From an uncultured bacterium (GTDB taxonomy: Bacteria; Bacillota; Clostridia; Lachnospirales; Lachnospiraceae), in contig CAJMPJ010000013.1 of assembly GCA_905215155.1 (NCBI GenBank), positions 1-64,000 on the forward strand: DNA of 64,000 nt, in the 5' to 3' direction. The translations under genes were made by a program, and so were the position numbers. Positions 15,621 through 36,666 of the stretch are shown in pieces. Below the pieces are notes generated by a model that was given only the letters and a program-made list of their open reading frames with translations, did not search any database and was not told the origin of the DNA. Position 1 is the first letter of the stretch; each line of letters opens with the position of its first letter.

Positions 15621-16529
15621 TTACCCGATACACGCTTCTGTGGTTCTCACTGCAGCCTCTTTCACATCCTGTTTCTGGCTGTTCTGCTTGATGGCACTAA
15701 TTCTGTCATGAAGAGACTGGTGTTCCTCTTTCTCCTCGTCCTGTTCTTCCTCCCCTTCCATCACAGTTTCCTTTTCATCCATGTTCAGCAATGCATTCAG
15801 TTCCGACAGACGTTCCAGTTTCTGGTTCAGTTCTTCCTCTTTCGGAAACGTTTTTTTCACCTCTCCCATCGCATTTTTCAGCTGCCCCTGTACTGTCTCC
15901 AGCTTACGCTCTGCTTCCGCCAGCTTTTGCGGGATTGCCTCCAATGCGTTATTGATCCTGATGATATTACCATTTTCATCGGAACCAAGGCTGACACGAT
16001 ATACATTTTCATTTTTCAGGGAAAGGATAAATTCCTTGTTCCAGGAATCAAACTTTAAGCGGATGGAGAACCCCTGATACTGTCCGACACTGATCATAGC
16101 ATCTGCCTGTTTCATGGACTGGCAGACAGCAAGGAGGGCTGCTCCCGCTTCCTTTTTCTCATAAAAGACTGTGCCACCAACTTCCATTACAAATTTCTCC
16201 GGATCCGTGATCTTATTTGCCTGATACTTTCCCAGATCCGCTTTGTATCCCTCGATGCTTTCCTTAAGTACTGCTATCTGCTGTGGGAAATTCTTTGCAA
16301 TATCATCTTCCAGCCGGTAATGGTTGCTCACAAAATTTGCTTTCAGCAGCTTCAGCTTCGATACTTCCACATCCAGTGCCATTTTTTCCTTAATCGCCGG
16401 ATTCCCTGTTGCCAGGGCTTTTACTTCCGCATAGGATAATGCCGTATCGTCCACATCCTCGCAGCTTCGTACCGGAGATTTGCTGGTCATGATCTGGGAA
16501 ATGAATTTCTGCTTGCTTTCGATCAGCTG
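15621..16529 (-). pseudogene. Methylase/SNF2 helicase, 3' part (third piece)
   Basis: 302 sense codons that complete the giant methylase-helicase gene. Directly after the intron 3' end the frame reads QLIESKQKFISQIMTSKSPVRSCEDVD, the conserved region just after the helicase C-terminal domain, and continues through a coiled-coil C-terminus to the stop at 15621-15623. A longer open frame runs back into intron domain V/VI, but no start belongs to it. Removing the intron joins Trp (end of piece two) to Gln here without frame change. Without splicing and excision of the IME this part is not translated as part of the helicase. Confidence 0.85.
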
Positions 16530-35900: not shown

Positions 35901-36666
35901 TCCTGTCATTTTCCAGATCCATGAGGACATACCGTCCAAGCTGCATCAGAATTGGTCGGCAGATCTCATTGACCGCTGTGCCAAGGTGCCCAAGCACACG
36001 GAGATCATTAAAATCTGTGATGTGCCGCAGGCTGTCCGCAGACAGATACTCTTCCGTATCTATCCCGCACCGCTTTAATAGGACATACCATACACTGTCG
36101 GTCATAAGGTCCCGGAACTCTACTTCCTGGTTCTGCTCATCCAGTTCTTCCAGAAATGTCCCCTGCACATCCAGTTTCAGTTCATTAAAAGCATCCGGAA
36201 GCCACTCCCGCACACTTTCCTGTGCTGCCTGATGCAGGGTTCCGGCAAGCCCGCCATCTCCTTCGTCCAATCCATACGCTCTCTGCAGATAATCTGCCGC
36301 AATGGAGCGGTCATCCTGTGGCAGCAGCCACAAAGCCGGGTCTTTCCCCAGATTCCGCACCTTATAAGTATCCGAAATATCAAACACATACCGCAGGCGG
36401 TTTTTCGGGCTGGATGTATAATCAATCAGGGCAATGCCTTTTGACCCTTTCTTGATCCATCGGTACATCCGCTTATTCCATACCTCCATGGATGCCACGG
36501 CAGTTGCTTCCGGTCTCTGGGCAAAGATCAGGAGCTGTTCATCAAAGGTGTATTTATATAACCGGGATGCGGTATCCAGAAAACGCATCCACTCTTCCGG
36601 CTTTGCTGCAATGTCCTTTGCGACTTCTTCTGTCAGCTGTTCCATGGCATATAGTTTATTTGCCAT
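29911..36666 (-). CDS. N6-DNA methylase / SNF2 helicase, 5' part truncated by the IME
   Basis: Giant DNA-processing protein of Tn1549-like ICEs. The native part ends at 29987 (2226 codons plus two bases); the last 25 residues (VGRILRTFKIKKN...) come from IME DNA. From the N-terminus: ArdC-like opening (MRFLDTASRLYKYTFDEQLLIFAQRP); a variable linker (~290-410) that overlaps tnpV in another frame; helical repeats (~430-860); a methylase domain with LEPSMGVGNFFG and NVPFG (~1040-1250); and SNF2 helicase with VVGSGKT (~1740), VDEAH (~1900) and FATGTPVSNS. Motif VI and the C-terminus lie in the pieces at 18881-18983 and 15621-16529; the intact protein would be ~2563 aa. As it stands the helicase is truncated. 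AGGAGGATG-type site before the start. Confidence 0.9.
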   Translation of the reverse strand: MANKLYAMEQLTEEVAKDIAAKPEEWMRFLDTASRLYKYTFDEQLLIFAQRPEATAVASMEVWNKRMYRWIKKGSKGIALIDYTSSPKNRLRYVFDISDTYKVRNLGKDPALWLLPQDDRSIAADYLQRAYGLDEGDGGLAGTLHQAAQESVREWLPDAFNELKLDVQGTFLEELDEQNQEVEFRDLMTDSVWYVLLKRCGIDTEEYLSADSLRHITDFNDLRVLGHLGTAVNEICRPILMQLGRYVLMDLENDRKTVAKESEVVYNEFNTLIHESEENTRETKIEENKEETEHERDHLQQERGLSDPGYQTGGDQGDHREIRDDAEGISEEPQESQIQHTGTAEQAGQTSDGSGQRSQTESGRPDHAASRERPGTGEISRQHGMDSSHEPDPGAGRGTGGSGDYIQLSLFPTEEEQFGEIRKAAAALTQPAAFFVSDEIVDDVLRTGSGRKNTLFHITAKLVEGIDHEELRSFLIQEYGTGGKGFEFSGQKFSVWYDGDGMRFRRGESARRNYDRMLTWEEAANRIQDMYDAGTYVSNVIMQNSIKVECDELSSQLALHFRDTGAIRGIYSHTETTERFRAGLDDPEQTREYYQMLVELERDMERHPENYMRYQIRNNPIYKQRVYDLGRTLDWRRQEESVTPPEMAFITQDEIDSVLRRGGNVAGGRNRIYEFFMEHHDEKEAADFLKHEYGDGGCTPGIQGSDLSDEWHDAKGIRLSKGQISNPSLTTLVKWKQAASRTRQLIRMDDFLSPEELEKYEERQEAQRLAEMEEVKQSLETEEVPEKTEEVHEVVHTEENVEDKPEESGQPLRAEDVQNLVLVNRQYSSVSRTTEYDFTCEIRGEQDILHYTVEYHDDGEGFTIHTEKNDIWERMSEPELERLEMVLEREALYFQYHEDIENATNLEELQEVSYSIMENESIYFRQISERVWNEYGQRERDLSVEIPAVNFHITDDQLGYGTAKEKFRANVMAIQVLKKCESENRYASPEEQEIMSNYVGWGGLPDAFDESKASWSDEYQELKDLLTKEEYAAARESTLNAHYTQPVIIESMYQVLQNLGFEKGNILEPSMGVGNFFGMLPDKLQQSRLYGVELDSISGRIAKLLYPNADIQIKGFEKTDYPNDFFDVAIGNVPFGSYKVNDRQYDKYNFMIHDYFLAKTIDQLRPGGVAALITTKGTMDKASPEVRKYLVERAELLGAIRLPNNAFKANAGTEVSADILFFQKRESISMEEPEWVALGEDNNGITINQYFITHPEMVLGTMAEVSGPYGMETACLPLEGADLAEQLEDAAVKIHGTMGPAVTAETELDEIMESIPADPSVRNYSFTVVDDQIYYRVNSLMNPVKLPAATAERIKGMVEIREVVRELIALQMEENATDEAIQDLQVRLNQVYDAYTEKYGVIGSNANKRAFSDDSSYCLLCSLEELNEDGTLKRKADMFTKRTIKKAVAVTSVETAAEALTISLNEKARVDLPYMAGLTGKTEEKVAEELTGVIFRDPVNGQWETADEYLSGNVREKLKTARIFAENHSEFTSNVYALEQVQPVDLDASEIEVRLGATWIAPEIYRDFMEELFDTPGYLVGRVIDIRYSEASGAWNISGKNADSDRNVLTTATYGTSRINAYKILEETLNLKDVRIYDTKMDAEGNEIRVLNKKETMLATQKQDAIKEAFKDWIFRDQERREKLCQIYNERFNSIRPREYDGSHLTFPGMNPEIELRPHQKNAVAHQLYGDNVLLAHVVGSGKTYEMVAAAMESKRLGIAQKSLFVVPNHLTEQWGAEFLQLYPGANILVATKKDFEPANRKKFCARIAMGSYDAVIIGHSQFERIPLSEERQKKIIEEQIEELEAGIQQAKLESDGSRFTVKQLEKTKKSLRRRLEKLENKEKKDDVVTFEELGVDRLYVDEAHYYKNAFLYTKMRNVAGIAQNEAQKSADMFNKCQYLDEITGGKGITFATGTPVSNSMTELYTMQRYLQYGKLNRMGLGHFDSWASTFGEVVTSIELAPEGTGYRAKSRFARFYNIPELMSMFKEIADIKTADQLELPVPEAEYETVVLKPSEHQKEIVESLGERAEVIRDGGVDSSVDNMLKVTNDGRKLALDQRLVNPLLPDDGDSKICACVEKSFAIWKETASKRSAQLIFCDLSTPKGDGTFNVYDDLKKKLMAKGVPEAEIAFIHDANTEVKKTDLFSKVKSGQVRFLLGSTAKMGAGTNVQDRLIALHHLDVGWKPSDVGRILRTFKIKKNVEVTDNGKIII
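29965..29990 (+). repeat. IME attachment end, tnpV side
   Basis: Complement of TTTTGCGGACA at 29965-29975, then crossover TCAG at 29987-29990. The helicase frame runs through this point into IME DNA. Confidence 0.75.
35442..35786 (-). CDS. tnpV: TnpV family protein encoded inside the helicase gene in another frame
   Basis: 114 aa on the same strand as the helicase gene but in another frame. It matches TnpV throughout: YSRNGDYLIPDIKLEE...IGKYGMMRKEYLRNHKKARFSILALQNRLDRHLMEVDSEARQKVEDL and a tail MNRIRAQAEELVVQEIIYN parallel to the IME copy's NNIRACAREIVEKEIIFA. A ribosome-site-like AGGAGGAAACAGAGC precedes the start. In the helicase frame the same DNA gives a Gln/Gly/Ser/Asp-rich low-complexity linker. 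TnpV is evidently the older frame. Confidence 0.75.
   Translation of the reverse strand: MREITYSRNGDYLIPDIKLEETRGTIGKYGMMRKEYLRNHKKARFSILALQNRLDRHLMEVDSEARQKVEDLTMQLLEKDPAPEKSADSMAWTRHMNRIRAQAEELVVQEIIYN

What the first reader, a model, noticed from the sequence alone, without database searches (positions are those of the whole stretch)
15621..36666. One giant ICE helicase gene split into three by a serine-recombinase IME and a group II intron
The pieces 29987-36666, 18881-18983 and 15621-16529 join in exact phase (6680, 103 and 909 bases) into a ~2563-aa methylase/SNF2 protein. The IME interrupts just before helicase motif VI; the intron lies 104 bases further on between a Trp and a Gln codon. 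Two unrelated mobile elements target the same conserved ATPase segment. While the IME is integrated the ICE should make only a truncated helicase with an IME-encoded 25-residue tail.
Basis: partly seen in the sequence, partly recalled or inferred. Interest (0 to 1): 0.75.

Follow-up and report, generated by a model that had tools for sequence, protein, structure and literature searches.

The report
Conjugation-element gene hit by two hitchhikers
A giant gene of a gut-bacterial conjugative element is interrupted twice within about 100 bases, once by a mobile element carrying tetracycline resistance and once by a self-splicing intron, and the same double hit is found in other gut bacteria, although each kind of insertion was already known by itself.

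Summary
Compared one by one with 120 homologues, the three pieces abut: in 110 of 120 exactly one residue (a split codon) lies between pieces 1 and 2 and none between 2 and 3. The first insert is an 11.0-kb IME (serine recombinase, MobV relaxase, ParB, TnpV, tet(O)-type gene). It is 100% identical in two E. faecalis plasmids, in a diverged helicase gene at the same place, which fixes its ends. The second is a complete-looking 2351-bp group II intron; in another genome it is 98.5% identical between diverged exons. Both kinds of insertion in this ICE gene family are published: tet(O) MobV IMEs and other group II introns. New here, as far as I searched: the intron's site (after the TFDxYxW codons), and double occupancy with the same 103-nt spacing in six further genomes. 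IME, exon and intron identities disagree there, so the combination probably arose several times. No cooperation is shown; in sampled genomes the two occur singly. A new member of a known kind, moderately interesting as a multi-occupancy landing pad.

The parts
29987..36666 (-). Helicase gene piece 1: N6-methylase + SNF2/ResIII part, 2226 codons + 2 nt
   Evidence: Pfam N6_Mtase, ResIII, SNF2; aligned apart to natural homologues
18984..29986 (-). Integrative mobilizable element, 11,003 bp, inserted just before motif VI
   Evidence: 100.0% identical over its whole length in two E. faecalis plasmid records with diverged flanks
18984..20840 (-). Large serine recombinase of the IME, stop codon at the element edge
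   Evidence: Pfam Resolvase, Recombinase, Zn_ribbon_recom, DUF4368
21434..22288 (-). ParB-like protein of the IME
   Evidence: Pfam ParB_N
22297..23433 (-). MobV relaxase of the IME
   Evidence: Pfam Mob_Pre; NCBIfam MobV above cut-off
23787..24812 (-). AAA_25 ATPase (RepA-like, name recalled) of the IME
   Evidence: Pfam AAA_25
27270..29189 (-). tet(O)-type tetracycline resistance ribosomal protection gene in the IME
   Evidence: NCBIfam NF033148 1308 bits, cut-off 1100; the identical stretch is labelled tet(O) in the E. faecalis record
29556..29930 (-). TnpV
   Evidence: Pfam TnpV
18997..19007 (+). 11-bp inverted repeat, low end of IME, same sequence as published for S. suis IMEs
   Evidence: exact match; PMC9815147
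29965..29975 (-). 11-bp inverted repeat, high end of IME
   Evidence: exact match
18984..18987 (.). 4-bp direct repeat, low edge; its copy is at 29987-29990
   Evidence: read from the sequence
29911..29986 (-). IME-encoded end of the truncated helicase ORF (25-residue tail, first codon shared)
   Evidence: translation
18881..18983 (-). Helicase gene piece 2: motif VI segment, 103 nt
   Evidence: aligned apart to homologues
16530..18880 (-). Group II intron, 2351 bp
   Evidence: Rfam RF02012 at 18689-18829 and RF00029 at 16530-16606; full-length 98.5% match between diverged exons in L034
16611..18365 (-). Intron-encoded reverse transcriptase/maturase
   Evidence: Pfam RVT_1, RVT_N, GIIM; TIGR04416 above cut-off
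15621..16529 (-). Helicase gene piece 3: last 302 codons + stop
   Evidence: aligned apart to homologues

Best explanation
The gene is the methylase/SNF2-helicase (COG4646/DarB-like) gene of a Tn1549/CTn-type ICE, probably in a gut Firmicute. Shown by comparison: it was one reading frame; a serine-recombinase IME carrying a tet(O)-type gene integrated inside the codon before motif VI; a site-specific group II intron sits 103 nt downstream between a Trp and a Gln codon. Each element is found at its own short conserved stretch of this gene family in other genomes, and the two sites do not overlap, so both can be filled. Inferred: while the IME is in, piece 1 yields a protein ending in 25 foreign residues, without motif VI and so without ATPase activity. 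The intron can be tolerated because it can splice from RNA; the IME can leave only at the DNA level through its own recombinase. A full-length protein would therefore need both events.
For: Pieces abut on 110 of 120 homologues. IME edges are set by 100% identity that stops at the edges in another target gene. Close IME recombinases have helicase residues from about 252 on directly behind them in 7 of 16 examined insertions and in 5 of 13 IMG/VR loci. Intron: Rfam at both ends; intact RT; same codon junction in 4 of 5 genomes with a close RT, in 3 of 3 genomes found by junction pattern (one genome shared with the former), and 6 of 120 homologues end in the intron's first codons. Double occupancy in 6 further genomes, with discordant identities of IME, exon and intron.
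Against: No expression, splicing or excision data. The guide-exon pairing that I read by eye fits the window (12 of 12), but the EBS1 side breaks at the fourth base in 7 of 11 compared introns, and the EBS2 side was not scored for the relatives because the script's pattern failed there; splicing competence is not shown. In L056 both intron and IME are partly deleted. 8 of 16 examined close IMEs have no helicase segment in the downstream stretch fetched.
Confidence: 0.88

Rival explanations
1. The gene is simply dead: both insertions are decaying debris in an immobile ICE, and neither excision nor splicing matters.
For: A decayed double insertion exists: in L056 the intron and the IME are partly deleted. 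In G001 the same intron is itself split by about 3.5 kb with three tyrosine recombinases. S. suis IMEs in SNF2 often decay, and one did not appear to excise (PMC7168690, passages).
Against: In the window the recombinase, relaxase, ParB, TnpV and intron RT are uninterrupted ORFs. The IME is 100.0% identical over 11,003 bp in another organism's plasmids, and the intron is 97.8-98.5% identical elsewhere, which suggests recent movement of both.
Confidence: 0.3
2. The IME acts as a regulated switch: it leaves when conjugation is induced, so that the ICE gene works only then.
For: Proposed for IMEs in ICE genes by Coluzzi et al. (PMC5357655, passage), by analogy with prophages.
Against: No excision data here. 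ICESp2905 was reported to transfer with its IMEs in place (PMC5704250, passage). I did not find a regulatory link, but did not search for one systematically.
Confidence: 0.2
3. The pieces are separate genes that only resemble parts of a larger protein.
For: Pieces 1 and 3 lie in ORFs of their own.
Against: Exact abutment on 110 of 120 homologues. Piece 2 is only 34 codons long.
Confidence: 0.01
4. One insertion caused or guided the other (cooperation between IME and intron).
For: Same 103-nt spacing in the window and 6 further loci.
Against: The spacing is set by conserved codons. The 6 introns with readable upstream sequence in sampled genomes have no IME, and the 7 helicase-borne IMEs there have no intron behind them. 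The pattern can only find double hits, so it gives no frequency.
Confidence: 0.04

Closest known systems
tet(O) MobV IMEs with type-3 serine integrase in the SNF2 gene of Tn5252/Tn1549 ICEs (IME_Class_6, 'tet(O) fragment' of ICESp2905)
   Same: Serine recombinase at the element edge, PF01076 relaxase, ParB, TnpV, tet(O), the published 11-bp inverted repeat, integration inside the ICE helicase gene
   Different: Host ICE is Tn1549/CTn-like and probably from a gut Firmicute rather than a streptococcal Tn5252 element, and an intron sits in the same gene. Papers seen as passages, not whole.
Group II introns targeting ICE helicase and virB4 genes of S. suis (PMC12479173, passages)
   Same: Site-specific group II introns in an ICE helicase gene; an intron also in virB4 of this ICE
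   Different: Published helicase sites are DNMLXI and WRPXDXX; here the intron follows TFDxYxW. A relative in G029 does lie at the WRPXD-like site.
Group II intron in snf2 of ICESsuYS66 (PMC9815147, passages)
   Same: Intron in snf2 of an ICE that also hosts a MobV IME
   Different: There the IME lies at the PPI gene, not in the same gene as the intron.
Group II intron in a DarB-like/SNF2 gene of a streptococcal prophage (PMC12350094, passages)
   Same: Same type of host gene
   Different: Prophage, group IIA; no IME in the gene mentioned in the passages seen.

Membership tests
SNF2-targeting MobV tet(O) IME | Large serine recombinase gene beside the recombination site | tested here: met
   Recombinase stop codon lies at the IME edge
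SNF2-targeting MobV tet(O) IME | PF01076/MobV relaxase | tested here: met
   PF01076 201 bits; MobV 176.5 bits, cut-off 100
SNF2-targeting MobV tet(O) IME | TnpV and the 11-bp inverted repeat near both ends | tested here: met
   repeat sequence from PMC9815147
SNF2-targeting MobV tet(O) IME | Integration inside the ICE helicase gene | tested here: met
SNF2-targeting MobV tet(O) IME | Integrase falls in clade Ser_3 | not tested
   no reference set of named integrases was fetched
SNF2-targeting MobV tet(O) IME | Excision and mobilization by a conjugative element | not testable with these tools
   needs experiments
Mobile group II intron | Ribozyme domains D1-D4 and D5/D6 | tested here: met
   RF02012 79.4 bits (gathering 34), RF00029 72 bits (gathering 40), both over the full model
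Mobile group II intron | 5' GUGYG and 3' AY ends | tested here: met
   sequence; the consensus is recalled
Mobile group II intron | RT/maturase ORF | tested here: met
   TIGR04416 361 bits, cut-off 300
Mobile group II intron | EBS-IBS pairing with the 5' exon | tested here: inconclusive
   12 of 12 in the window, the only such place among 127,974 positions, but loops chosen by eye; EBS1 pairing breaks at base -4 in 7 of 11 compared introns; EBS2 not scored in relatives
Mobile group II intron | Homing into one site in divergent alleles | tested here: met
   98.5% intron identity where the exons' protein is 86% and 70% identical to the query; first 480 nt 96-99% identical among L053-L058 where exon B is 59-92% identical
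Mobile group II intron | Splicing in vivo | not testable with these tools
   needs RNA
Tn1549/CTn-type ICE | VirB4 CD1110, VirD4 CD1115 and CD1108 families | tested here: met
   all three above NCBIfam cut-off; that these mark Tn1549/CTn-type ICEs is recalled
Tn1549/CTn-type ICE | ICE integrase, relaxase and ends | not tested
   not looked for; the window may not reach both ends
DarB-like methylase-helicase | N6-methylase plus SF2 helicase in one giant protein | tested here: met
   Pfam; an intact homologue weakly matches a SNF2/Rad54 helicase (E 5.8e-5) and an RM methyltransferase (E 1.9e-4) of known structure by sequence
DarB-like methylase-helicase | Anti-restriction activity | not testable with these tools
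   needs experiments; no direct comparison with phage P1 DarB was made

The most novel reading that the evidence does not exclude
The motif V-VI region of this ICE helicase is a multi-occupancy landing pad: within about 53 codons, elements of two chemistries (serine recombinases of two lineages, group II introns at two or more sites) have each adopted a different conserved stretch, double occupancy arises repeatedly and independently, and the ICE gene becomes a two-lock gene that needs both DNA excision and RNA splicing.
Probability: 0.4. Interest if true: 0.6.

Novelty: new member of a known kind. Interest (0 to 1): 0.38.

Why it matters
It shows how parasites of conjugative elements, one of them carrying tetracycline resistance, converge on the most conserved codons of one ICE gene, where they are likely to find a target in new hosts. 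It also illustrates why such ICE genes can be mistaken for pseudogenes. The recurrent double hits make the open question of whether these genes are needed for transfer, and how the elements tolerate each other, easier to test.

Tried and rejected
Separate-genes reading: rejected by the abutment test. Assembly chimera: unlikely, since six other genomes have the same composite. IME-intron dependence: not supported, as the sampled genomes show single insertions. G026:C65 and G068:C15, first taken as interrupted, were dropped from the tally: the first is a gene fragment beside chromosomal S2/EF-Ts genes, the second another gene with a similar C-terminus. An IME-edge + motif pattern over 392 genomes gave 0, but the pattern was badly made and excludes known cases, so it says nothing. 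The intron pattern in viral contigs gave 0; window 30000-50000 (part of the ICE backbone) gave no match in plasmids at near identity. Guide-exon covariation was tried and is inconclusive: it fits 4 of 11 introns on the EBS1 side (three of these nearly the same intron), and the EBS2 comparison of relatives failed in the script. L057 was first read as a decayed intron; its intron runs to within about 100 bases of the locus end, so it cannot be judged.
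Full report
What is in the window. The region is the backbone of a Tn1549/CTn-type conjugative element: VirB4 (CD1110), VirD4 (CD1115), a CD1108-type cell-wall hydrolase and topoisomerase III match NCBIfam models above their cut-offs, and a DnaC/IstB-like ATPase lies beyond (its named DnaC models stay below cut-off). A RadC domain and RepA_N match Pfam. The window's own assembly is not held; the nearest genome shares 21% of its sampled words. The few homologues with a source name come from Blautia, Coprococcus and Lacrimispora. The host is therefore inferred, not known.

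The broken gene. ORF 29911-36666 (2251 aa) has N6-methylase and SNF2/ResIII domains. The search found 7966 homologues and listed 120; 52 of these are 2550 aa or longer. In 110 of 120 all three aligned, and every one of these gave one residue between pieces 1 and 2 (the split codon) and none between pieces 2 and 3; the 10 others lacked piece 2 and/or 3. Some homologues are themselves cut: 6 of 120 end in the first codons of the same intron at the same place, and 2 end in another GUGCG-like start in motif V (the second reading is mine). An intact homologue weakly matches a solved Rad54-type helicase (E 5.8e-5) over residues 2162-2273, which hold motif VI.

The IME. The 11,003 bp between pieces 1 and 2 are 100.0% identical in two E. 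faecalis plasmid records. Exact identity ends at 18984 and at 29994, the latter 8 bases inside target sequence. In L001 the target is another, diverged SNF2-like gene: alignments of helicase residues 3-274 (48%) and 252-447 (37%) flank the element, their overlap being alignment spill. The IME encodes a large serine recombinase, ParB, MobV relaxase, an AAA ATPase, sigma-like proteins, a tet(O)-type gene and TnpV. An 11-bp inverted repeat published for S. suis IMEs lies near both ends, and a 4-bp direct repeat marks the edges. In 299 genomes of the nearest genome's family, 45 have a recombinase relative at E <= 1e-120. I examined 16 insertions of relatives at least 82% identical (17 of 19 such rows, two contigs of G029 being taken as halves of one insertion; two rows had no locus). 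In 7 the helicase segment from residue 252 follows directly, in 8 no helicase segment is found in the downstream stretch fetched (at most 1.5 kb), and 1 is truncated. In IMG/VR, 5 of 13 loci show the same junction; two of the others (L099, L100) have too little downstream DNA to tell, and in L104 the segment lies about 1.7 kb away. So this helicase site is a main target but not the only one.

The intron. Rfam finds the D1-D4 part and D5/D6 above gathering score, both over the full model, and the RT/maturase is an intact ORF. L034 holds the intron full length at 98.5% nucleotide identity, between exons whose protein is 86% and 70% identical to the query P0010, which fixes both boundaries. By RT search at E <= 1e-150, 5 of 299 genomes match: four have the intron exactly at the Trp|Gln junction, and the fifth (55% identity) has no helicase in its flanks. 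By junction pattern, 3 of 392 genomes match, all at this site; one of them, G001, is already among the four. That pattern includes the Trp codon's letters and so is biased towards it. A 71% relative in Anaerococcus plasmid pAPRE01 adjoins a gene labelled helicase-related; its junction was not read. The exon-guide pairing fits in the window but breaks early in 7 of 11 introns compared. I treat it as open.

Two hits in one gene. A pattern of IME edge + 90-115 nt + intron start matches 6 contigs of a collection with one genome per species: strain 1XD21-29, Dorea sp. 5-2, Petralouisia muris, Eubacterium plexicaudatum ASF492, and records named Eubacteriaceae bacterium and Clostridia bacterium. All 6 have 103 nt between the elements. 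Window and L054: IME 100% (last 1200 bp), exon B 64%, intron 91% (first 480 nt). L053 and L054: exon 92%, intron 97%, IME 86%. The discordance suggests that IMEs entered intron-bearing genes, or the reverse, more than once; at least three events is my reading, not a tree. In the sampled genomes the two are found apart: the 6 introns with readable upstream sequence have no IME and the 7 helicase-borne IMEs have no intron behind them. I find no sign of cooperation.

A hot segment. In one search, 58 of 150 genomes match. Of the 78 rows with E <= 1e-40, 49 run uninterrupted across query residues 245-300; without G026:C65 (a chromosomal fragment) and G136:C36 (cut near 236) that is 47 gene copies. 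Against these I count 12 copies interrupted between residues 236 and 289, with inserts read: this IME 2, group II introns at the W|K of WKPSD 3, an RT-bearing insert at 257 1, introns at 288|289 4, a different serine recombinase near 236 2 (one of these, G136:C69, is above the E cut). This is a hand tally. Also dropped: G068:C15 (another gene) and the halves in G120:C14, G120:C15, G029:C43 and G087:C39, which end near or at contig ends or were not examined.

Function, inferred. SF2 helicases need motif VI (established knowledge), so the product of piece 1 with its 25-residue tail should lack ATPase activity, while the methylase part may still work. [quoted passage not shown] passages). If it serves anti-restriction rather than the mating pore, its loss would be tolerable, which fits a reported transfer of an ICE with a disrupted helicase gene (PMC5704250, passage).

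What is known. IMEs of this kind in the ICE helicase gene are described for Tn5252 ICEs and for a Tn1549 COG4646 gene (PMC5357655, PMC7168690, PMC9815147; passages). Group II introns in the helicase (two sites) and virB4 of ICEs are described in S. suis at other motifs, and an IME in the helicase of a Tn1549 ICE too (PMC12479173; passages). My searches listed no paper that, in the listings or passages I saw, describes an IME and an intron in one copy of the gene or the TFDxYxW site; no paper was read whole, supplements were not seen, and most subscription papers are not in this library.

Verdict. New, as far as I searched, are this intron site, the recurrent double occupancy and the tally of a crowded target segment.

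Noticed in passing
window 52801-57998: The ICE's virB4 (CD1110 family, matched only to model position 612 of 752) is interrupted by a second, different group II intron (about 53242-55976, RT at 53362-55254); the rest of virB4 lies at 52801-53241.
   Followed up: partly
L033 6841-10043: In the nearest held genome (G001) the same intron is itself split by an insert of about 3.5 kb with three tyrosine recombinases in a row.
   Followed up: partly
L036, L037 (G120); also L035, L051: One genome carries two 3' ends of this intron family at the same helicase site, and two helicase 5' halves that stop near contig ends just past residue 288; contigs break inside the intron, so assemblies may hide such copies.
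   Followed up: partly
L041-L043 (G029): Three helicase copies in one genome have a related intron (3' end 94% identical) at the WKPSD-like site, the very stretch in which the IME integrates.
   Followed up: partly
L045, L046 (G136): A serine recombinase only 52-53% identical sits near helicase residue 236, a second recombinase lineage aimed at the same domain.
   Followed up: no
window 39138-45506: A 2122-aa LPXTG-anchored, pilin-domain protein in the ICE backbone with seven matched SpaH/EbpB-type stretches.
   Followed up: no
L048 (G039) 5814-8633: An RT-bearing insert at query residues 166|167 of the helicase, a further insertion point upstream.
   Followed up: no
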